In this document: positions 53,433-64,000 of the stretch, in pieces
Position numbering within the stretch: the stretch's first letter is position 1
Layout: every line of letters starts with the position of its first letter
Assembly: GCF_001724815.1 (NCBI RefSeq)
Contig: NZ_MEDO01000014.1
Span: 434,001 to 498,000, forward strand
Direction of reading: 5' to 3'
From: Arenimonas sp. SCN 70-307
GTDB taxonomy: Bacteria > Pseudomonadota > Gammaproteobacteria > Xanthomonadales > Xanthomonadaceae
Length of the DNA stretch: 64,000 nt
Position numbers and translations under genes: made by a program
The notes under the pieces: model-generated
Database searches by the model: none
Told to the model about the DNA's origin: nothing
Seen by the model: only the letters and a program-made list of their open reading frames with translations

Positions 53433-54020
53433 TCAGGCCCGACCACCCTCCAGGAAATTACGCAGCATGTCGTGCCCATGCTGCGTGAGTATCGACTCGG
53501 GATGGAACTGCACGCCCTCGACCGGCAGGGTCTTGTGGCGCAGGCCCATGATCTCGTCCATCGAGCCGTCGGCGTTTTCGGTCCAGGCGGTGATCTCGAG
53601 GCAATCGGGCAGCGAGTCCTTCTCCACCACCAGCGAGTGGTAGCGCGTGGCCTCGAAGGGGTCGGGCAGGCCGGCGAACACGCCCACGCCCTTGTGCCGG
53701 ATCGGCGAGGTCTTGCCGTGCATGATCGTGCGCGCCCGCACCACCTTGCCGCCGAAGGCCTGGCCCAGGCTCTGGTGGCCCAGGCACACGCCCAGGATCG
53801 GAACCTTGCCGGCGAGCTTCTCCAGCACCTCCAGCGACACCCCCGCCTCGTTGGGCGTGCACGGCCCCGGCGAGATGACGATGCGCTCGGGCGCCAGGGC
53901 CGCGATCTCCGCCACCGTGAGCGCGTCGTTGCGCACCACCCTCACGTCCTGCCCCAGCTCCCCCAGGTACTGCACGAGGTTGTAGGTGAAGCTGTCGTAG
54001 TTATCGATCATGAGGACCAT
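53433..54020 (-). CDS. trpG: Anthranilate synthase glutaminase component, start rebuilt by an integrated element
   Basis: A 195-residue TrpG/PabA glutaminase that feeds ammonia to TrpE. It has [11 protein letters not shown] near residue 56, the catalytic I-L-G-V-C-L-G-H-Q near 81, and V-Q-F-H-P-E-S-I near 170. The first codons are ATG GTC CTC ATG ATC GAT (M-V-L-M-I-D-N-Y-D). Close homologues begin M-L-L-M-I-D-N-Y-D, and a stranded ATG CTG TTG ATG ATC GAT stands at 61539-61556, beyond the integrated element. So the first three codons and the ribosome binding site AGGG (54027-54030, six bases before ATG) belong to the element. An in-frame TTG at 54026 would add two residues. Promoter now unknown. 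Confidence 0.95.
54003..54011. repeat. Left attachment core (trpG side)
   Basis: The nine bases ATCGATCAT are codons 4-6 (Met-Ile-Asp) of trpG read on the minus strand. The identical core is at 61539-61547. The crossover lies within or beside it, because sequence before it on the left is trpG coding DNA and sequence after it is element DNA. Confidence 0.8.
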
Positions 54021-54072
54021 AAGCAACCCTAAGAAGTTGATTAGCTTGGGTTTTCATCCCTCGCTATCGAGT

Positions 54073-54095
54073 CCGTATACCGATTCATATACCGG
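54073..54095. promoter_or_regulatory. Candidate integrase/excisionase arm site, left
   Basis: The 23 bases hold CCGTATAC and ATATACCGG around CGATTC, a partial palindrome. A related 20-base motif in opposite orientation lies at 61399-61418, and a half copy (GATATACGAC) at 61439-61448. Placement just inside both ends suggests arm-type recombinase sites, as in other P4-type elements. Confidence 0.5.
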
Positions 54096-54224
54096 TCAGG
54101 TTCGGACCACTTGGGCCTTTCCGGTCTAGGCATTCATTTTGCCCTAGCGGGACCGCGCCCGGACGGTTGTTGCATCGGAAAGAGAGTCATTCGCTGATTC
54201 CGGCTCGGACTAAGGGACGAAGCT

Positions 54225-54244
54225 CCATGCAATCCGTTGCATGG
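54225..54244. promoter_or_regulatory. Palindrome upstream of the cargo operon, possible operator
   Basis: CCATGCAA and TTGCATGG form a perfect 8-base inverted repeat with a four-base centre, 96 bases before the ATG of the first cargo gene, in an otherwise empty 320-base region. The surroundings also repeat GACCGG/CCGGTC words. An operator or RNA hairpin is possible; no -10/-35 pair is convincing. Confidence 0.4.
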
Positions 54245-54340
54245 ACCGGTCACCAATTTCGGTCGAAATGATCCCCAAGACCGGCCATTCAGAAACGTTA
54301 AGATCGGCCGTGAACCATTGAGGACAACTAAGGGGGAGCC

Positions 54341-54778
54341 ATGGGATTGGTCAATTGCCCGACTTGCGGCCATAGCGTAGCCACGTCTGCCACCAGCTGC
54401 CCAAGCTGCGGTGCAAAGCTTAAGCCGACACTGGACCCAGCGGAACGGCAAGCCACAAATACCGGCTGCCTAGGACTGGTGGCCACCGCAGTCGTGTTAT
54501 TTGTCGCCATCCCTTGGGGATGCAGCAAGCTCAATCCGCCGCCCAGGTCACCGGAAGAGGCTTTGGCTCGCGCTGGGTACACCGAAGTAGAACGCGCACT
54601 CAGCCAAATGGACTGCCGTGATGGCGAGTGGAAGGCACTGCCATTCTCTGCCTTCCGATCAGGGCAATACGTCATGGGCGTAGTGTGCAAGAGTAAGAGT
54701 GGCGGTTATCGCATTCAATCCAGAGCATGGAATGAAGACGCTGATGGTGAGTGGTCACTGAGAAAGCCAAAACGCTAG
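54341..54778 (+). CDS. Zinc-ribbon membrane protein of unknown function (cargo gene 1)
   Basis: A 145-residue protein, not recognised. The N-terminus is a zinc ribbon with C-P-T-C-G (residues 6-10) and C-P-S-C-G (20-24). A hydrophobic segment at about 43-60 (C-L-G-L-V-A-T-A-V-V-L-F-V-A-I-P-W-G) should span the membrane, followed by an R-S-P-E-E-A-L-A-R-A-G-Y stretch and a soluble C-terminus with two cysteines. AAGGGGGA just before ATG 54341 is a strong ribosome binding site. It opens a three-gene plus-strand operon. Moderate GC marks it as acquired DNA. Confidence 0.7.
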   Translation: MGLVNCPTCGHSVATSATSCPSCGAKLKPTLDPAERQATNTGCLGLVATAVVLFVAIPWGCSKLNPPPRSPEEALARAGYTEVERALSQMDCRDGEWKALPFSAFRSGQYVMGVVCKSKSGGYRIQSRAWNEDADGEWSLRKPKR

Positions 54779-54825
54779 GGCCACTGGCTTCAGCATTGGG
54801 AATGTCAGGCGTAGGAGCCTTTGCT

Positions 54826-55467
54826 ATGACTCTCGAACAAGAGCGCAAAAAGCTCGATGCCCTGCTCGACGAGATTCCCGCTGTGGGTATGCACGCTCTG
54901 GGCGGGAGCGGCGCACCTCTCTTCATCCTCGACTTCATCATCTCCGCCGCAATCAAGCGGACCCTTAACCTCGGACATGGGCTGCTTTCGATGATCGAAG
55001 CACGGAACATGACATGCAGCCGCGCACTGGTCCGGATGCAAATTGACACCGTGAGCCGCCTTCTGGCCTACACCTATGTCTCAAATCCAGAAGAGGTGGC
55101 TAAGGCGGTCATCGGGGGAACCCCTCTCAAGAAGTTCAAGAGCCGGGAAGGAAAGACACTTAGGGATGACTACCTAATCGACCGTATGACGGAAACGCAT
55201 GATTGGGTCCGGACTGTCTACAACTCTACATCTGGTGACGTGCATTTCTCAGAAAAACAGTTTTTTGCCTCGGTCACCTCTATGAAGGACGATGAGGGCG
55301 GCCGAAGCATTAGCATGATGCTGAGCCAGTTCGACACGAACTATCCTGAATTTAGCTGGGCCGAAGTAGTCGCCTGCTTTTCTGAGCTTTGCGAAATTCT
55401 TATCTCGATTCTTACCCAGTACGGGGATCACAAGAAACAACCCAGCCACGCACCTCCGCCAGCATGA
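54826..55467 (+). CDS. Helical protein with HEPN-like features (cargo gene 2)
   Basis: A 213-residue, mainly helical protein, not securely placed in a family. The middle holds R-N-M-T-C-S-R-A-L-V-R-M-Q-I-D-T-V-S-R-L-L-A-Y, then D-R-M-T-E-T-H-D-W (an R-x4-H motif) and Y-N-S-T-S-G-D-V-H-F-S, which recalls the Y-x-x-x-S-x-x-V-H-x-S pattern common in HEPN-like and DUF5677-type proteins, some of which are ribonucleases in toxin or phage-defence systems. This is a resemblance by eye only. AGGAG lies eight bases before ATG 54826. Its stop overlaps the next gene (ATGA). Confidence 0.65.
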   Translation: MTLEQERKKLDALLDEIPAVGMHALGGSGAPLFILDFIISAAIKRTLNLGHGLLSMIEARNMTCSRALVRMQIDTVSRLLAYTYVSNPEEVAKAVIGGTPLKKFKSREGKTLRDDYLIDRMTETHDWVRTVYNSTSGDVHFSEKQFFASVTSMKDDEGGRSISMMLSQFDTNYPEFSWAEVVACFSELCEILISILTQYGDHKKQPSHAPPPA

Positions 55468-56447
55468 CCACGGGAAAACCTAAATTCGCAGTGGACCTTA
55501 CTAAAGGCGCGCAATCTTCACTCGCTGCCCACGCGCTCCTGCATTTAGTCGATGCCTCCAAAACCTATCACGTCCAAGAAAACTTGCGCCCCGCGCTTGG
55601 CATTTACAACATCTCAATCGCCCGGGTTTGCACAAAGACTCAACGATTCTGTTCTGCATTAGAGCAGCGCATCACAGGCGGCGTCGGCATTGAATCCCGG
55701 AAGGAGTCCGAACTCCCAACCGATGACCTTGTCGATTACATCGAATTAGCACTGTATGCAGCCGCAGAGCACGTGGACGATCTGAAGCTAATCGCAGAAA
55801 ACTTCTACGAGAGCGATCACTCCAGGAATCGATGCCCAGCATTTAAAGTTTTCGCCAAGGCGATCAAAGATCATAAAACGTTTGTCGCCACCTTCGCCAA
55901 CCTAATCAAGCATTCGCAGTCTCGGGTGCGGCTATTTACGCTCGATTACAACCATGCTGGCGAGGTAGGCAGGCTGCACGGCTATTTCGTGGAGGGCGTG
56001 GACAAAGGAACCATCTGCCCCCATCCAGTCTTTCACGACAGCAATAAGAATGTTTTCTCGATCACTACTTTGGCTTGGGAGGTCATCTGTTTCCTCCTCC
56101 GCTGCTCGGAATCTCTCAGAGTCTTTCTAAGCAACCAACCCCTCTTGCATGGCCCCGCGTCGGCAACGGCAACTCCATTTCAAGATGCGGTGATTGCTGC
56201 GGCACGCCTACCGCTCTATACCTTCGATGAAGACCACCCATTCTCCCAAAGCACTCTGAACCTAACTTGGGACGATCAATCATGGGAACGGGTGTCATCC
56301 GGCATATACGGGTCAATCCACAATCGCTGGAGTCACAGCCAAAATATGCAACTCGGCAACCCGTCCCTTGCCTATGCCGGAGATGGCGTCAGCAGGACTT
56401 TTAAGATCACAGGGCCGAGTCGCGTGGGGCTTCAGCGCTGGGAGTAA
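55464..56447 (+). CDS. Unknown protein, possible HEPN-like (cargo gene 3)
   Basis: A 327-residue protein with no family I can name. An N-terminal helical half contains Y-I-E-L-A-L-Y-A-A-A-E-H-V-D-D-L and F-A-N-L-I-K-H-S-Q-S-R-V-R; the N-x-I-K-H motif is frequent in uncharacterised HEPN-like proteins. The second half is more mixed, with a hydrophobic helix (T-T-L-A-W-E-V-I-C-F-L-L-R-C) and a C-terminal tail. ATG 55464 overlaps the previous stop by four bases, which implies tight coupling and a joint role with gene 2. It ends one base before the convergent minus-strand gene. Confidence 0.65.
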   Translation: MTTGKPKFAVDLTKGAQSSLAAHALLHLVDASKTYHVQENLRPALGIYNISIARVCTKTQRFCSALEQRITGGVGIESRKESELPTDDLVDYIELALYAAAEHVDDLKLIAENFYESDHSRNRCPAFKVFAKAIKDHKTFVATFANLIKHSQSRVRLFTLDYNHAGEVGRLHGYFVEGVDKGTICPHPVFHDSNKNVFSITTLAWEVICFLLRCSESLRVFLSNQPLLHGPASATATPFQDAVIAAARLPLYTFDEDHPFSQSTLNLTWDDQSWERVSSGIYGSIHNRWSHSQNMQLGNPSLAYAGDGVSRTFKITGPSRVGLQRWE

Positions 56448-56448
56448 C

Positions 56449-56973
56449 TTAGACGGCACAACTGTCCATAGCCTCCCGCGCTCGCGCTATCACTTCATCG
56501 TCGGAATAATCGCGGGCAGGCTCGGCCCCGTGGAAGGCTAGCGTTTCGGCGGGCAGTACCGCTTGCACCGTGGGCAGTCCCAAGATCGCAGACAACGCAA
56601 ACATGCCCGCTTGTTCGGTACCACTGCCGGTTGCCGAATCGACAAGCTCTAGGAAAGTTTCGCCGGTTGGCAGGTGATCGGCGTTGAAGAGCGCTCCCAC
56701 TGCCAGCGCGAACCGTTCGCCGAATGATAGCAGTGGGAGCGGAAGGTCAGTCAGTCGGATGGCCTTGCAATTAATTGCCCCTTTGAAGGCCTGCCATAAC
56801 TGGTCAAGCTCAGGGCGTGGCATGGTCTCTATGGGGCGCATAATCGCCTTCGCAACTGCCCACAGCATGACGGCCTGCACCACCGGGCTACCGCTGCACC
56901 CAAGCTCCCTCAACCGCCACACTTCGCGGCAGGCTTGCATATCAATGGGGTCTTGTTGGCTCTTCAGCTTCAT
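56449..56973 (-). CDS. Unknown island protein
   Basis: A 174-residue mainly helical protein, not recognised. It begins M-K-L-K-S-Q-Q-D-P-I-D and contains the repeated hydrophobic helices V-V-Q-A-V-M-L-W-A-V-A-K-A-I and L-S-F-G-E-R-F-A-L-A-V-G-A-L-F. It overlaps the end of the HTH gene by about 30 bases, so the two are co-translated. A P4-type element often has small accessory proteins at this position. AAGGA lies nine bases before the ATG at 56973; a TTG six codons earlier is an alternative start. Confidence 0.6.
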   Translation of the reverse strand: MKLKSQQDPIDMQACREVWRLRELGCSGSPVVQAVMLWAVAKAIMRPIETMPRPELDQLWQAFKGAINCKAIRLTDLPLPLLSFGERFALAVGALFNADHLPTGETFLELVDSATGSGTEQAGMFALSAILGLPTVQAVLPAETLAFHGAEPARDYSDDEVIARAREAMDSCAV

Positions 56974-57337
56974 AGGCGGTGATCCTTGCAATGATCGCGT
57001 TCCACTCCGGAGCGGCGGACGGGGCAGGCGGTGCGATCCTCGTGGCAGTCAGACTCAGCGCCGCGTCAATCGCTCGCAGGGCGATTCCTGGGCTTTGGTG
57101 CTCTAGCAGTTCGCCTAGCTTTTCAACCGCTCGCAGACGCAGCCCCGTAAGAGCCTGCGCGGTCTCTTGCTCAGCGGCAGACAGCAGCGAATCCACGTAG
57201 GCGCGGAAGTCCCGACGGCCTGCCCATTCGCTCACCGTCTGCGGCGTCACCTTCACAGCTGCGGCGGCCTGCCGGTGCGTGTGGCCTGCGGCAATGAATT
57301 GCGCTGCCTGCCGCTGCTTTGGCGTGAGAGTGTTCAC
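56942..57337 (-). CDS. Helix-turn-helix protein, terminase-small-subunit-like
   Basis: A 131-residue protein with an N-terminal helix-turn-helix: L-T-P-K-Q-R-Q-A-A-Q-F-I-A-A-G-H-T-H-R-Q-A-A-A-A-V followed by V-T-P-Q-T-V-S-E-W. This is the phBC6A51/terminase-small-subunit type HTH that recognises phage DNA ends. The rest is helical (A-L-T-G-L-R-L-R-A-V-E-K-L-G-E-L-L). No large terminase gene is nearby. A satellite that redirects helper packaging would fit, but a simple regulator is equally possible. The start is GTG 57337 with AAGGAAG upstream. Confidence 0.7.
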   Translation of the reverse strand: MNTLTPKQRQAAQFIAAGHTHRQAAAAVKVTPQTVSEWAGRRDFRAYVDSLLSAAEQETAQALTGLRLRAVEKLGELLEHQSPGIALRAIDAALSLTATRIAPPAPSAAPEWNAIIARITAYEAEEPTRPH

Positions 57338-57364
57338 CTTCGGCTTCCTTCGGGTCGCTTCGGG

Positions 57365-58009
57365 TTACTTCCGCCCAAGTCGCGCCATATAGCTATCGTT
57401 AAACCATGCCTTACGTTCTTCCGCCTTCCGGGCCGTCATGGGAGCCGGTGCGGATTTGTTGCCCTGCATGCGCACCGTATGGGCAGACTTCCCAAGGCTC
57501 ACAGTGGAATTGTCGCCTTTCGCGGCGTGATAGGTGAAGCCTTGGCGCTGGGCTGCGCTACGGCTTGCGTTCCATGCTTCCGCGTCATCTTCTGCACGGC
57601 TGGCACGTAGCACTGCGTCCATGTTTGCGGTGCTTGCCTTGGGACTGGCCGCAATGGTGACAGCAGCGGCAAGGGTATTGATCGCTGCAAAGACTGCATC
57701 GATTCCAGACGGCTCTTCCTTCGCTGCCGGTGCGCCGCTCAAGTTGCTGGTAGCGTTCGGGTGTCCATTGTTACCAATCGTGCTAACGGGCAGGCTATCC
57801 GGAGTCTTTCGCAGAGCCTTGGACATATCGGCCTTTCGTGCGGACTGCTTGGGCTTATTGGCCACTGACTTACGTACCTGCATGGACTTCTGCACTTTCG
57901 TGCGCGGCTGCATCGGCACCACATGAAGGATGCTGGCGTATCCGGGGGAAATGGACTTCTGCACGCGATTCTTGCCGGTGACGTGCAAGGTATCAAGATC
58001 GATGGACAT
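57365..58009 (-). CDS. Unknown island protein
   Basis: A 214-residue, low-complexity, basic protein, not recognised. The N-terminus is rich in K, S and V (V-Q-K-S-M-Q-V-R-K-S-V-A), the middle has a short hydrophobic helix (A-V-F-A-A-I-N-T-L-A-A-A-V-T-I-A-A), and the C-terminus R-K-A-E-E-R-K-A-W-F-N-D-S-Y-M-A-R-L-G-R-K is charged. I chose ATG 58009, which has GGAG seven bases upstream; a GTG at 58054 overlapping the previous stop is weaker. It could be a nucleic-acid-binding or scaffold-like accessory protein. Confidence 0.55.
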   Translation of the reverse strand: MSIDLDTLHVTGKNRVQKSISPGYASILHVVPMQPRTKVQKSMQVRKSVANKPKQSARKADMSKALRKTPDSLPVSTIGNNGHPNATSNLSGAPAAKEEPSGIDAVFAAINTLAAAVTIAASPKASTANMDAVLRASRAEDDAEAWNASRSAAQRQGFTYHAAKGDNSTVSLGKSAHTVRMQGNKSAPAPMTARKAEERKAWFNDSYMARLGRK

Positions 58010-58053
58010 TGAAGCACTCCACTCTGTTTCGCTCAGTTTAAAACAGGCGACCA

Positions 58054-59316
58054 CTACCTAACGCATCTTGTAAGACGCTTAATCAGCAGCTGCACGTCAC
58101 CGCCACACTCGTTAAATCGCTGGCGATGCGGATTCGGATCAATTGGCGCAGGTTTCGGCTGCTCAGATAATTGCGATGCCTGAAACTCAGCGGATGCCAC
58201 TCGCGAGGCATCCATAACGGACATGCCGCCTTTCATGAGTTCAGCAACCCTTGGCCGCATAAAGGCATTGAATGCGTCTGCGTTTTCCTTGTCCTTCGCC
58301 TTCGCAGCACGCATGACCTGCACCGTAGTTGGCTCGTGCAATTGATTGCAAACTGCCTCTTCCTCGCCCTTTAAAGCATTCGCGGGAGCCTGCGGGGGAA
58401 GACTTGGGAGCGGGTTGAACATCGGATAAGCCGGAGCGACCTGTTCTAGTAGTTCATCCTGCTTAGCTGCCTGCAATGCATCGCGTTCGGCATATCGCCG
58501 CTGACGCTCCCCCTCTGCATCCTTCGCCAGTGCCCGGAATTTCTCTCGCACGCCTGGCCGCTTGGCGGTGTTGGCATGGTCTTCATAGAACCGGGAAAGC
58601 CAATCAAGGCGATTGAGCGTGAAGTACTTGTCCGGGCGACTCCAGTACTCCCGCTCCAATGCCGGAGTGCTGAAGCGGAAGTCTTCCACCGGATCAATAG
58701 CCTTCCCCGCCGCTGCCACGATTTCAGACAAAGACCATTTCCCCCGTTCAATTTGCTTGTCCAGCCTCTTGCGCGGGATGCCAAGAAACTTGGCGAATCC
58801 CTTTCGGGTGTAGCGGATGCCTAACCATTCAATGCGGTGGTTGCTCTTCCGGTTATCCGCCTGCTCTTGCTTGGTAGCCCACCGCAGGTTCCCCGGCTCG
58901 TAGCCCTTCAGGAAATTGATTCGGTCGGCGGTGTACTCACGCGATGGGCGAAGCCCAAGATGCACAAGCCAATTCCGGAAGTCGCCGAAGGTCACGTAAT
59001 CAAACGGCACTCCCGATTGCCGGGTCTTAGGGTTGTGGGCACGTCGCCATGAGTTGTATTCGAGCCGGTATTTCAAGTACAGATCAGTGTCCTTGGGGAA
59101 CCGGCGCACATCTTGTTGCAGTTCCGCGTATCGTTTCGCGTAGGTGTCGCCCTTCAATTTCTCTTTGACCTGCTCCGATTCCTGGGCCTTTGGCGTGAAT
59201 TGACGTGAACGTTTCCCGCTCTCTTGTTTCTTTTTCCCCCATAGATCGGCGACTGTCGCACTAGCGTGCAAATTAGCGACATCACCCGATGTTCCATCGT
59301 TATTGTTTGCGTCCAT
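58054..59316 (-). CDS. HNH-like phage protein with long basic N-terminus
   Basis: A 420-residue protein. Residues about 80-170 carry the pattern Y-L-K-Y-R-L-E-Y-N-S-W-R-R-A-H-N, F-R-N-W-L-V-H-L-G-L-R-P-S and Y-T-A-D-R-I-N-F-L-K-G-Y-E-P-G-N-L-R-W-A-T-K-Q-E-Q-A-D-N, familiar from phage HNH/AP2-type DNA-binding proteins (D-R-I-D-x-G-Y-x-P-G-N-C-R-W-A-T). Here the D-R-I-N-F form lacks the usual aspartate/glycine turn, so nuclease activity is uncertain. The C-terminal half is helical and rich in A, Q and E. It is the largest phage-like gene of the element. Confidence 0.65.
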   Translation of the reverse strand: MDANNNDGTSGDVANLHASATVADLWGKKKQESGKRSRQFTPKAQESEQVKEKLKGDTYAKRYAELQQDVRRFPKDTDLYLKYRLEYNSWRRAHNPKTRQSGVPFDYVTFGDFRNWLVHLGLRPSREYTADRINFLKGYEPGNLRWATKQEQADNRKSNHRIEWLGIRYTRKGFAKFLGIPRKRLDKQIERGKWSLSEIVAAAGKAIDPVEDFRFSTPALEREYWSRPDKYFTLNRLDWLSRFYEDHANTAKRPGVREKFRALAKDAEGERQRRYAERDALQAAKQDELLEQVAPAYPMFNPLPSLPPQAPANALKGEEEAVCNQLHEPTTVQVMRAAKAKDKENADAFNAFMRPRVAELMKGGMSVMDASRVASAEFQASQLSEQPKPAPIDPNPHRQRFNECGGDVQLLIKRLTRCVR

Positions 59317-59449
59317 TTTGATGCTTTCCTGCCATGTTTCGCGGAAGAGCTAGCGCGATAGTTTCTCTCTGCACCTTGTCTCCATGTCGTCATTCCGGAG
59401 ACAGGCGTGTCGCACGCTGGTGCAAATTTTCTCTGGCGTGTTGCTCAGT

Positions 59450-59571
59450 AGTTCGGCAGGATTCAAACTTCATATGTCAACGGACTCCTGCCAAGGTCAC
59501 CGCTGACCTCCTTGATGCGGATCAGGCGAGACGGGAAGCCGGAAGGTCTAAACAGCCTTCCGGTTTTTTTA
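59450..59571 (+). ncRNA. Candidate structured small RNA ending in an intrinsic terminator
   Basis: On the plus strand three stem-loops follow each other: 59455-59461 with 59486-59492 (GGCAGGA/TCCTGCC), 59494-59499 with 59504-59509 (AGGTCA/TGACCT), and 59539-59546 with 59556-59563 (CCGGAAGG/CCTTCCGG), the last followed by seven T residues. Both flanking genes lie on the minus strand, so a plus-strand terminator has no protein gene to serve. A short transcript between 59317 and 59571 is the simplest explanation. No promoter is clear; the 5' end is a guess. This fills the 252-base gap. Confidence 0.4.
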
Positions 59572-59916
59572 TTGCGCTGAGTCCGCACCCTTTGCCTTCA
59601 TCGATTCCAGATGAAAGAGGATCGTTTCAGAGTGCCAATATGGCCTGCCACGCGATCCCTTTTCCCCCATCGAAATGTCATAGCCATCCGGCTTCGGCAG
59701 CAGCCCGTGCTTGAAGCGGGTTCGGATCGTGGCGTGTGAAACGCCATAGATGGCCTGAAGATTCTTGATCCGTAGCAGCTGCGGCACGGTAAGCGGCGCA
59801 CATGGAGGAACGGCCCTGAAGGCGTCGGGGTTGTACTTCCTGACCCGCTTAAGTGCTGCCTGCTTGTCAGGCGAATTCTTGGCTACCGCGCTCTCTACTT
59901 TGAAAATGATCGCCAT
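59569..59916 (-). CDS. AlpA/MerR-type small regulator of the element
   Basis: A 115-residue DNA-binding protein. After a basic N-terminus it has L-L-R-I-K-N-L-Q-A-I-Y-G-V-S-H-A-T-I-R-T-R-F-K-H-G-L-L-P-K-P, the winged-helix pattern of AlpA and related P4-type excisionase/regulators, then R-G-R-P-Y-W-H-S-E-T-I. AlpA controls integrase and excision in P4-like elements. Its stop TAA at 59569-59571 lies inside the T-run of the candidate RNA terminator on the opposite strand. It is separated from the integrase by the integrase terminator, so it needs its own promoter. Confidence 0.72.
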   Translation of the reverse strand: MAIIFKVESAVAKNSPDKQAALKRVRKYNPDAFRAVPPCAPLTVPQLLRIKNLQAIYGVSHATIRTRFKHGLLPKPDGYDISMGEKGSRGRPYWHSETILFHLESMKAKGADSAQ

Positions 59917-59936
59917 CTTTCCTCACTCCAGAAACG

Positions 59937-59993
59937 AAAAAAGCCGCAATGCAGTGGCCGTGATTCTTCACCGGCTCCACTCCATTGCGGCTT
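59937..59993 (-). terminator. Intrinsic terminator of the integrase gene
   Basis: AAGCCGCAATG (59941-59951) pairs with CATTGCGGCTT (59983-59993), with partial inner pairing, and on the minus strand is followed by TTTTTT. It begins 68 bases after the integrase stop and before the AlpA-like gene. Confidence 0.85.
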
Positions 59994-60061
59994 AGTTGTC
60001 GACGGCTCAGTGGCCGCTATGAAAGGGAATGCTATTGGCTGAAAGACTACCTAGCAAGCGG

Positions 60062-61363
60062 TCATGCAACTTTCTTTGCTTTGCCGATTGGCACAACATT
60101 GGAACCGCCAGAAAGCAGCAGGTTTTGCCAGTAATTCATAAGTTCCTTGCGATCTTCCCAATACTCCGAATGGTTGTAGCTGGCCGCGACCTTGTTCCGC
60201 TCCGCGTGAGCCAACTGCTTTTCAATCACGGCGTGATTGAAATTCGCTTCATGCAGGACCGTGCTAGCGGTTCCTCTGAATCCGTGGCCGCTCAGTCGGT
60301 CACCCCAACCCATCCGCTCTAGTGCGCGATTGATCGTCGTGGCAGACATGACCTTGCCCGCCGTGCGCTGATTGGGGAAAAGGTGCGTGGAATTGCCCGA
60401 AAGCGCCATTTGCCGCGCAATCAATTGCACCGCACGCTCAGGGAGTGGCACGTAATGGGCCTGCCCCATCTTCATCTTGTGACCCGGAATCTTCCACACC
60501 GGACCAAGGCCACCCGCGCCCTCCAAATCAAACTCCGACTTTTCCGCGTTCCGGAGTTCGGCCGTGCGAACCCATAGCAGCGCCAACAACTCCACTGCGA
60601 TCTTTACCGACTCGGTTAGCTTCGGGTCTTCCGGATCATTCAATGCCCGAAGGTCCGCTATGAATTGCGGCAAGTCCGCACGTGTCAGGTGCTTGTGATG
60701 CTCCACCTTGGGCCGCTTGATTAGTCCCTTCAGCACGGCGGCAGGGTTGCGGTCTTCGTCTACTTTCCCCTCCGCTGCCGCATAGTTGAAGATCGCTCCG
60801 CACCACTGGCGAATGAGGATCGCCACGGTTGCCGCGCCCCGCTCCCGCACTCGCTTGATTCCCGGCACGCTCTTGCGAGTAGCAACCCGCTTCAGAATGG
60901 GCCGCAGGTGCGCGGCTCTCACGTCCCGGATAGGCATAGCTCCGACTTCCGGGAACACGTCTCGCTTTAGCGTGGTCTCCACCTGCCCGTAGTAGTAGGC
61001 GGACCAATGCGGCTTGTTCGCTGCCATCCAATCTCGGGCGGTGGTTTCAAAGGTGTTGGCCGCTGCCTCTTTCTTGGCTGCCTTCGCGGCCTTCGTTTGC
61101 TCCACCGGATTGACGCCCTTCAGCACAAGAGCGCGGGCGTCCGCGTGGGCCTTTCGGGCATCGGCCAATGACACGTCCGGATAGACCCCTAAGCCCATTA
61201 GGGTCTGTTTGGAGTTCAGCACAAACCGGTATCGCCAGTACTTCTTTCCGTCCGGGTAGACCCAGAGGAAAAGGCCGTTTCCAAGGCCCCGCGTGTAGGG
61301 CTTCTCTCCGGGCTTCAGAGCCTTGATGGCCTTGTCTGTCAGCGGGGTATTGGCTTGGGTCAC
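60062..61363 (-). CDS. int: P4-type tyrosine integrase
   Basis: A 433-residue tyrosine recombinase. The N-terminal DUF4102 arm-binding domain (about 1-90) has G-L-G-N-G-L-F-L-W-V and L-G-V-Y-P-D-V-S-L-A-D-A-R; the core-binding domain follows (about 100-205). Catalytic residues: Arg in L-L-W-V-R-T-A-E-L (266), His and Arg in H-G-F-R-G-T-A-S (360, 363), His in L-A-H-A-E-R-N (386) and Tyr in A-S-Y-N-H-S-E-Y (396). The start is GTG 61363 with AGAGG six bases upstream. Arm sites lie just upstream at 61399-61418. It integrates into trpG rather than a tRNA gene, which is uncommon. Confidence 0.93.
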   Translation of the reverse strand: MTQANTPLTDKAIKALKPGEKPYTRGLGNGLFLWVYPDGKKYWRYRFVLNSKQTLMGLGVYPDVSLADARKAHADARALVLKGVNPVEQTKAAKAAKKEAAANTFETTARDWMAANKPHWSAYYYGQVETTLKRDVFPEVGAMPIRDVRAAHLRPILKRVATRKSVPGIKRVRERGAATVAILIRQWCGAIFNYAAAEGKVDEDRNPAAVLKGLIKRPKVEHHKHLTRADLPQFIADLRALNDPEDPKLTESVKIAVELLALLWVRTAELRNAEKSEFDLEGAGGLGPVWKIPGHKMKMGQAHYVPLPERAVQLIARQMALSGNSTHLFPNQRTAGKVMSATTINRALERMGWGDRLSGHGFRGTASTVLHEANFNHAVIEKQLAHAERNKVAASYNHSEYWEDRKELMNYWQNLLLSGGSNVVPIGKAKKVA

Positions 61364-61398
61364 GGCGGGCCTCTGAACGCGATCTAGAGGACTTCACG

Positions 61399-61418
61399 AT
61401 ATACCGACTCGTATACGG
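61399..61418. promoter_or_regulatory. Candidate integrase arm site, right
   Basis: ATATACC-GACTC-GTATACGG, inverted relative to the left motif at 54073-54095. A further half-site GATATACGAC lies at 61439-61448. All are in the 176-base stretch between the integrase start and the right attachment core, which otherwise has no gene. Confidence 0.5.
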
Positions 61419-61538
61419 CTGCACCTCGCGCTAGCCCTGATATACGACACCACTCCCTTTCAATCCATCTGCATAAAACGCCTTGTTTTTCAGGCTTTCA
61501 TGCGAATTCACGGCGCTCCGTTTCGACACATGTTGATG

Positions 61539-61556
61539 ATCGATCATCAACAGCAT
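61539..61556 (-). pseudogene. trpG: Stranded native start of trpG at the right attachment site
   Basis: On the minus strand the bases read ATG CTG TTG ATG ATC GAT, the expected trpG start (M-L-L-M-I-D), and then change to element sequence. The reading frame continues for about 40 meaningless codons into the element and stops near 61433. Bases 61531-61552 form a perfect 22-base palindrome across the core. The 51 bases between this ATG and the cyclase gene stop are host DNA. Confidence 0.85.
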
Positions 61557-61606
61557 GGGCCGGCCGGACGAAGCGGGAAAGGACCCGGAGTATAAAGCCT
61601 GCCGGC

Positions 61607-63346
<1,740 letters not shown>

Positions 63347-63350
63347 GGAC

Positions 63351-64000
63351 TCAGAGCCCGCTGGCCGCCTGGGCGACGGCGCGGAACAGCGCGCGGCCCT
63401 TGTTCATCGTTTCCTCCCACTCTTTCACGGGGTCGGAGTCGTAGACGATGCCCGCGCCGGCCTGCACGTGCAGGCGGCCGTCCTGGATGACGGCGGTGCG
63501 GATGGCGATGGCGGTGTCGGCGTCGCCCCACCAGTTCACGTAGCCCACCGCGCCCGAATAGATGTTGCGCCTGACCGGCTCGAGCTCGCGGATGACCTCG
63601 AGCGCGCGGATCTTCGGCGCGCCGCTGACGGTGCCGGCCGGGAACGTGGCCTTGAGCACCTCGGAGAACCCCACGCCCCCGCGCACCTGGCCGCGCACCT
63701 CGCTGACGATGTGCATCACGTGCGAGTAACGCTCGATGATGAAGCGGTCGGGCACGGTGACGCTGCCCGGCTCGGCCACGCGGCCGACGTCGTTGCGGCC
63801 CAGGTCGATCAGCATCAGGTGCTCGGCGCGCTCCTTCGGATCGGCCAGCAGCTCGGCCTCGAGCGCGGCGTCGGCCTCGGGCGTGGCGCCGCGCGGGCGC
63901 GTGCCGGCGATGGGCCTCACCGTCACCTCGCCGCCCTGCAGGCGCACCAGGATCTCGGGCGAGCTGCCCACCACCTGGGTGCCGCCGAGGTCGAGGAAAT
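63351..64000 (-). CDS. trpE: Anthranilate synthase component I, C-terminal part
   Basis: The minus-strand frame runs off the window end; about 216 C-terminal codons are visible. Chorismate-binding signatures: [25 protein letters not shown], the [11 protein letters not shown] segment, [14 protein letters not shown] and G-A-V-G-Y. The A[13 protein letters not shown] block is also present. It uses glutamine-derived ammonia from TrpG to make anthranilate. The N-terminal tryptophan-binding part and any leader lie outside the window. Confidence 0.96.

What the first reader, a model, noticed from the sequence alone, without database searches (positions are those of the whole stretch)
53990..61560. 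An integrative element sits inside the first codons of trpG and rebuilds the gene with its own start
Direct reading: trpG starts ATG GTC CTC ATG ATC GAT at 54020, with AGGG six bases upstream. Beyond the element, 61539-61556 (minus) reads ATG CTG TTG ATG ATC GAT, the start expected for this family. Both share ATCGATCAT on the plus strand. So integration happened in codons 4-6 of trpG, and the element carries Met-Val-Leu plus a ribosome binding site that keep TrpG at the same length with one conservative change. Elements using the 3' end of tRNA genes are common; use of the 5' end of a biosynthetic gene with start replacement is rarely reported.
Basis: partly seen in the sequence, partly recalled or inferred. 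Interest (0 to 1): 0.85.

Follow-up and report, generated by a model that had tools for sequence, protein, structure and literature searches.

The report
Mobile elements rebuilding trpG's gene start
A 7.5-kb mobile element has inserted into the first codons of the tryptophan/folate gene trpG and brought a replacement start for it; relatives of its integrase sit at the same place in many other proteobacteria and in viral sequences, which makes trpG a recurrent landing site of a known general kind.

Summary
The element (54003-61538, 56% G+C against 71-73% around it) entered trpG codons 4-6 at the 9-bp core ATGATCGAT. It left the native start (ATG CTG TTG) at 61556 and supplies ATG GTC CTC and an AGGG ribosome site at 54020. 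All 24 readable same-genus relatives start M-L-L, and the genome has one trpG. Beyond the finding: this is a recurrent class. Of 78 assessable integrase relatives kept from named genomes, 58 lie 154-203 bp behind a trpG-type start on the same strand (44 with trpE in the same locus), in Xanthomonas kin, Rhodanobacter, Pseudomonas, Oceanimonas, Alcanivorax, Burkholderiales and Rhodocyclaceae. Of 41 trpG-proximal ends, 41 keep an in-frame start 3-5 codons ahead of the core and 31 have an IHF-like motif there. Viral contigs, one with tailed-phage genes, carry the same start-plus-core as an apparent attP. Islands at dusA and prfC are precedents, so the principle is not new; seven searches of one open library showed me no paper naming trpG as an attachment gene. 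Inferred only: which promoter reads trpG now, and that the displaced trpG promoter reads the integrase.

The parts
54003..61538 (.). integrative element, 7536 bp counting one copy of the core
   Evidence: core copies at both ends; G+C 56.4% against 70.7% and 72.6% in the flanks
53433..54020 (-). trpG (TrpG/PabA type) with element-borne start Met-Val-Leu
   Evidence: GATase Pfam 3e-64; TIGR00566 above its cut-off; only full-length copy in the genome
54003..54011 (-). attachment core copy inside rebuilt trpG (codons 4-6)
54027..54030 (-). element-borne Shine-Dalgarno-like AGGG
   Evidence: family comparison
54030..54042 (-). IHF-like site AATCAACTTCTTA (WATCAANNNNTTR, consensus recalled), the only exact match found between 53991 and 61600
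54075..54092 (.). pair of GTATAY/RTATAC words, 12 bp apart: putative integrase arm sites at the trpG end
61399..61445 (.). three GTATAY/RTATAC words (first two 12 bp apart): putative arm sites at the integrase end
   Evidence: 5 of 6 such words of the element lie in its two 150-bp ends, 0 of 2000 shuffles of the ends have as many
61539..61547 (-). second core copy, inside a perfect 22-bp palindrome 61531-61552
61548..61556 (-). displaced native start of trpG, ATG CTG TTG
61589..61594 (-). candidate displaced native trpG -10 box TATACT, now pointing at the integrase
   Evidence: -10-like boxes before trpG in 14 of 24 genus relatives (no chance estimate made)
60062..61363 (-). P4-type tyrosine integrase
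   Evidence: PF13356, PF22022, PF00589; phrog_1
59569..59916 (-). small integrase-side protein, AlpA-like by eye; candidate excision factor
   Evidence: no family hit; 50% and 38% identical stretches beside integrases of G359 and G126
58054..59316 (-). HNH-like protein
   Evidence: phrog_3377 6.7e-17; relative beside the trpG-site integrase of G126
56942..57337 (-). terminase-small-subunit-like protein (weak match)
   Evidence: phrog_7344 2.4e-5
54341..56447 (+). zinc-ribbon protein and two proteins without family, transcribed away from trpG

Best explanation
A P4-type tyrosine integrase recombines an element-borne attP with an attB formed by trpG codons 4-6 (MID of the [11 protein letters not shown] motif), crossing over within ATGATCGAT. 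Shown by comparison: after integration the element end next to trpG supplies a start codon and the first codons (here Met-Val-Leu, elsewhere 3-5 codons), in the window with AGGG, so a TrpG of the same length can still be made; the native start and leader are left at the far end, upstream of and in line with the integrase gene. Inferred: the trpG-proximal end is an attL with core, IHF site and arm repeats; trpG is now read from a promoter within 54027-54340; the element excises precisely and restores the original gene.
For: Native starts in 24 of 24 readable genus relatives, cyclase-trpG adjacency in L008 and L014, single trpG. In the family, 10 of the 11 closest integrases sit beside a displaced trpG start, and in 7 of 11 genomes trpG is on the same contig and strand, 13-109 kb downstream. 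In named genomes 58 of 78 assessable loci have the trpG-type start 154-203 bp upstream of the integrase match on the same strand; within 400 nt the opposite strand and the two strands of the far side give 3, 2 and 2 of 78; random 160-nt windows of the same loci give 147 of 7900. TrpE lies upstream in 44 of the 58 and in none of the 20 others. 41 of 41 trpG-proximal ends have an in-frame ATG or GTG at -9, -12 or -15; the IHF consensus with at most one mismatch is in 31 of 41 against 2 of 29 sites counted as empty and 230 of 6200 shuffles. L208 (apparent attP) and L209 (behind trpE) are 386/389 identical from the start codon on.
Against: No sigma-70 promoter was found at the element end, and 31 element ends score no better than shuffles (7.77 against 7.74). 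A Shine-Dalgarno-like tetramer is present in only 24 of 41 ends, and the element's ribosome site pairs more weakly than the displaced one in 20 of 29 pairs, more strongly in 8. The in-frame start alone does not tell element from native DNA, since empty sites have one too. 20 of 78 relatives lack the trpG-type start, and a strict single clade is rejected (p-AU 0.0003). In 4 of the 58 the start is preceded by an element-type leader, so it is a tandem or circle junction rather than a displaced native start. No circle is seen in the assembly. Translation from the internal ATG is not excluded.
Confidence: 0.93

Rival explanations
1. TrpG is made from the internal ATG of the core (Met4) in both states, so the element's Met-Val-Leu and ribosome site are incidental.
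For: The core itself keeps ATG ATC GAT, and a Shine-Dalgarno-like tetramer is missing in 17 of 41 element ends.
Against: 41 of 41 element ends keep an in-frame start 3-5 codons further up; in 31 different ends the second bases of both codons before the core are always T (hydrophobic residues) while third bases vary; in the window AGGG is 6 nt from the outer ATG but 15 nt from the inner one. In one end (L178) the inner codon is TTG, not ATG.
Confidence: 0.12
2. The element is a remnant: once mobile, now fixed, with trpG kept alive by selection rather than by an active integration system.
For: Of its genes the HNH-like one was sought in 395 family genomes and found in 2, its own included; no conjugation or phage structural family among the nine element proteins scanned.
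Against: The integrase has all three domains in one open frame, and core and arm-like repeats are preserved.
Confidence: 0.3
3. The 9-bp identity is chance and the two trpG-like starts reflect a duplication or local rearrangement.
For: Nine bases is a short match.
Against: The same core and geometry recur in 58 of 78 loci and in 13 of 18 assessable viral contigs.
Confidence: 0.01

Closest known systems
dusA-associated genomic islands and prophages (PMC4482086; passages and section 18 read)
   [quoted passage not shown] the island supplies a new 5' end including a replacement beta strand; the original 5' end rejoins the gene on excision
   Different: target is trpG/pabA, core ATGATCGA instead of the 21-bp dusA site; only the first 3-5 codons ahead of the core are replaced; excision was shown there, not here
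SXT/R391 ICEs in the 5' end of prfC (PMC4344509, passages)
   Same: site-specific integration into the 5' end of a protein gene
   Different: different target and element; SXT int expression needs SetCD
ICEKp1 promoter switching (PMC13023037, abstract)
   Same: integrase read from the host target gene's promoter when integrated and from a 3'-end promoter when excised: the geometry seen here would allow the same
   Different: tRNA-asn target; shown by experiment there, only inferred here
Nearest named phages by integrase (S1, AchV4, YeP5, phiAH14b)
   Same: integrases of the same type, at most 53% identical to the four queries tried
   Different: no ATGATCGA in the 330 nt upstream of the integrase match (226 nt for phiAH14b)

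Membership tests
P4-type (arm-binding) tyrosine integrases | N-terminal arm-binding, central and catalytic domains | tested here: met
   PF13356 3.5e-23, PF22022 2.8e-20, PF00589 8e-17, all above cut-off
5'-end-targeting islands with start replacement (as at dusA, prfC) | displaced native 5' end at one side, island-derived start on the functional gene | tested here: met
5'-end-targeting islands with start replacement (as at dusA, prfC) | island supplies a promoter for the gene | tested here: inconclusive
   no consensus promoter; the nearest element gene points away from trpG
dusA-associated integrase family | insertion in dusA | tested here: not met
   insertion is in trpG
Integrative and conjugative elements | relaxase and type IV secretion genes | tested here: not met
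   none among the nine element proteins scanned
Phage satellites (PICI-like) | integrase, regulator, packaging-related gene, no structural genes | tested here: inconclusive
   weak terminase-small-subunit match (2.4e-5); no structural family; helper not testable
Active mobile element | excision to a circle and empty site | not testable with these tools
   assembly only; neither junction present

The most novel reading that the evidence does not exclude
trpG-targeting elements exchange promoters with their host: when integrated, the host's displaced trpG promoter reads the integrase and an outward promoter at the element's other end reads trpG; in the excised circle that same outward promoter, with the trpG start carried in attP, reads the integrase. 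The translation start of a core biosynthetic gene lies on or beside the IHF site of attL, so Int/IHF occupancy could tune trpG.
Probability: 0.35. Interest if true: 0.72.

Novelty: new variant of a known kind. Interest (0 to 1): 0.56.

Why it matters
trpG (here the only TrpG/PabA found, so serving tryptophan and probably folate synthesis) would join tRNA genes, dusA and prfC as a recurrent landing site for phages and islands across Beta- and Gammaproteobacteria. It gives a simple rule for finding and exactly delimiting such elements, supplies an integrase group with a predictable target, and offers a clean system to test how elements take over the start of a biosynthetic gene without losing its function.

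Tried and rejected
Rejected: native GTC CTC polymorphism (24 of 24 readable genus relatives have M-L-L; M-V-L does occur natively further away, in L074 and in the G151 displaced start, so it is a tolerated variant); a second trpG; membership in the dusA group (wrong target); a known RNA leader (no Rfam match above gathering score in 53900-64000); defence cargo (no PADLOC match for eight element proteins).

Led nowhere: consensus promoter scans; a stronger element ribosome site as advantage (means -4.8 against -3.6 kcal/mol over 31 and 27 sites, one-sided p 0.033, but paired with the displaced one it is weaker in 20 of 29); kin of the HNH-like gene (2 of 395 genomes, one its own); the other element genes were only compared with loci already fetched. 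Pfam on seven proteins just inside the island of L096 gave regulators and metabolic enzymes, no conjugation gene. Three stretches fetched were not used.

Literature: searches with trpG or anthranilate synthase terms were. None listed a paper that by title or passage describes trpG as attachment gene. Searches list only 25 of 233, 15 of 72 and 12 of 49 papers, mostly without trpG; of the 25 I opened passages of four (PMC12456005, PMC11577772, PMC6722718, PMC4686621), and of PMC7344871; the rest were seen as listings. The TIGER paper gkaa156 is not held, supplements could not be read, and island tables may list trpG.

Weak points of the counts: the 79 named loci are the best 80 of 551 matches. 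The 41 ends are the window, 10 family genomes chosen because their integrase had the displaced start (7 other trpG loci left out for lack of it, though L065 has an element-like leader), and the 30 loci returned for 38 places, whose 38 handles I picked from the 79 loci; one of the 30 (L178) belongs to a genome whose integrase lacks the start motif. Not each was checked to be on the integrase's contig. The set counted as empty sites (29) includes L006 and L060, whose leaders look element-like. Integrases L042-L059 and L035 were labelled as lacking the start from the reading. In the first tree two rows, L036 and L052, were mistranslated by my script; one search repeats it with them corrected.
Full report
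What is there. On the minus strand, trpG begins at 54020 as ATG GTC CTC ATG ATC GAT, six bases after AGGG; 7.5 kb upstream, at 61556, lies an orphan start ATG CTG TTG ATG ATC GAT that then runs into unrelated sequence. The stretch between is foreign by composition: 56.4% G+C against 70.7% and 72.6%. It holds a P4-type tyrosine integrase at 60062-61363 (three Pfam domains), a small integrase-side protein, an HNH-like protein, a weak terminase-small-subunit match, and a divergent group with a zinc-ribbon protein. Beyond it lie a GGDEF gene and the end of a chorismate-binding enzyme (trpE); trpD follows trpG.

Empty sites. Of 27 genomes of the genus searched, 26 gave a TrpG at E <= 1e-60. Leaving out the window's own, 24 of 25 starts can be read (L028 is cut) and all are M-L-L-M-(I/L)-D. 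In L008 and L014 a homologue of the GGDEF gene ends just before trpG, with a TATACT box between, like the one now stranded at 61589-61594. The genome has one TrpG and no separate PabA of comparable score.

Recurrence in the family. The integrase's 11 closest relatives in 395 family genomes stand apart (E below 1e-90, next 3e-81). Ten of the 11 have a displaced trpG start beside them (all but G359), and in 7 of 11 genomes the intact trpG is on the same contig and strand, 13, 23, 27, 65, 71, 96 and 109 kb downstream. Matching contig lengths suggest that G304 is Pseudoxanthomonas sp. Root630 and G126 Lysobacter lactosilyticus, so the window's family is probably Xanthomonadaceae/Lysobacteraceae.

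Recurrence beyond. A scan of named genomes with ten of these integrases kept 79 loci, the best of 551 matches. With the motif allowed one mismatch, 58 of 78 assessable loci have a trpG-type start 154-203 bp before the integrase match on the same strand; within 400 nt, the opposite strand has 3 and the far side 2 and 2. Control windows gave 147 of 7900. The TrpE C-terminus lies in 44 of these 58 loci and in none of the 20 without the start; TrpG itself is in 5 of 79. In 4 of the 58 (L077, L081, L082, L106) the start has an element-type leader, which suggests a tandem or circle junction rather than a displaced native start. Eight records from Zoogloea, Hydrogenophaga, Achromobacter, Brachymonas, Pseudomonas putida and three unnamed proteobacteria carry identical integrase rows, which suggests recent spread. 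The label is strongly clustered on the integrase tree (7 changes against 30.4 in shuffles), but one strict clade is rejected (p-AU 0.0003). 20 of 78 relatives lack the motif, and so do the four nearest named phages looked at; they presumably use other sites.

What the elements bring. Of 41 trpG-proximal ends (31 different at 80%), 41 have an in-frame ATG or GTG 3-5 codons before the core: M-L-L, M-V-L, M-I-L, M-R-L-L, M-(S/H/P)-K-(I/L)-L and M-A-R-I-L. The middle bases of the last two codons are T in all 31, while third bases vary, as expected of selected hydrophobic codons; empty sites keep the same kind of start, so this shows restoration, not origin. Element origin shows in the leader: between -31 and -18 lies AAATCAANNNNTTA. 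With the IHF consensus WATCAANNNNTTR (recalled), 15 of 41 match exactly and 31 of 41 with one mismatch, against 1 and 2 of 29 sites counted as empty and 7 and 230 of 6200 shuffles. A Shine-Dalgarno-like tetramer is in 24 of 41, and in 18 of these it lies wholly inside the IHF-like match. In the window the consensus is exact (54030-54042) and AGGG follows at its edge. Five of six GTATAY/RTATAC words of the element lie in its two 150-bp ends, in pairs 12 bp apart; 0 of 2000 shuffles of the ends have as many: likely arm sites, though the word was chosen after seeing it.

Viral copies. Of 29 viral-contig loci, 18 have enough upstream sequence and 13 of these have the core. Seven by my reading (six distinct, as L189 and L214 share one integrase) show the element-type leader, start and core: apparent attP. 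TrpE was found only in L188 and L209, but L201 and L214 hold too little sequence to judge. L189 has tail-fibre, baseplate and endolysin matches. L208, apparent attP, and L209, preceded by the TrpE end, are 386/389 identical from the start codon on, with integrases 99.5% identical. So the start of trpG appears to travel in the phage.

Mechanism. The parts fit integrase-mediated recombination at a core in the MID codons, with an attL of core, IHF site and arms. That this end also offers a translation start for trpG is shown by sequence; that it is used is inferred. In the window the next element gene points away from trpG, so a promoter between 54027 and 54340 is likely, but scans found none. 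In the 58 loci the trpG-type start points at the integrase. ICEKp1 reads its integrase from the host tRNA promoter when integrated and from its far-end promoter when excised (abstract of PMC13023037); the same exchange is my most novel reading here and is untested.

Novelty. Replacement of a gene's 5' end by an island is documented for dusA, including a replacement beta strand (PMC4482086, section 18), and SXT enters the 5' end of prfC (PMC4344509, passages). Seven searches of the open library with trpG or anthranilate synthase terms showed no description of trpG as attachment gene, within the limits told under Tried and rejected. I class it as a new variant of a known kind.

Noticed in passing
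window 56942-57337 (-) and 58054-59316 (-): Weak terminase-small-subunit-like and HNH-like genes without structural or conjugation families: the element may be a phage satellite. A relative of the HNH-like gene sits beside the trpG-site integrase of G126.
   Followed up: partly
window 61531-61552: Perfect 22-bp palindrome TGTTGATGATCGATCATCAACA spanning the right core.
   Followed up: no
L006 (G014), leader of trpG: Element-like leader (AAATTCAAGAAGATA before ATGCTGTTG) with ordinary-looking genes and no integrase in the 4 kb upstream: possible scar of a lost element, or chance.
   Followed up: partly
L077, L078, L080-L082: In Oceanimonas-like genomes no TrpE was found beside the start; L077, L081 and L082 have an element-type leader there, and the four such genomes searched hold a second, 45-48% identical TrpG homologue. 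The target may be pabA, or the junction a tandem or circle.
   Followed up: partly
L094-L098, L101-L103, L037: Identical integrase rows in eight records of several genera at the trpG site, and the same in G270 (L037), where trpG is 96 kb away: probably recent wide transfer of a large island.
   Followed up: no
literature: Pyocin clusters of Pseudomonas aeruginosa lie between trpE and trpG (passages of PMC7344871, PMC11577772), and the hrp island of Xanthomonas arboricola abuts trpG (passage of PMC4686621); whether these began as trpG insertions was not tested.
   Followed up: no
window 61607-63346 (-): A GGDEF gene lies between trpE and trpG; within the 1.5-kb flanks held, 64-88% identical homologues are beside trpG in 3 of 25 genus loci (L007, L008, L014) and a 41% one in L027.
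   Followed up: partly
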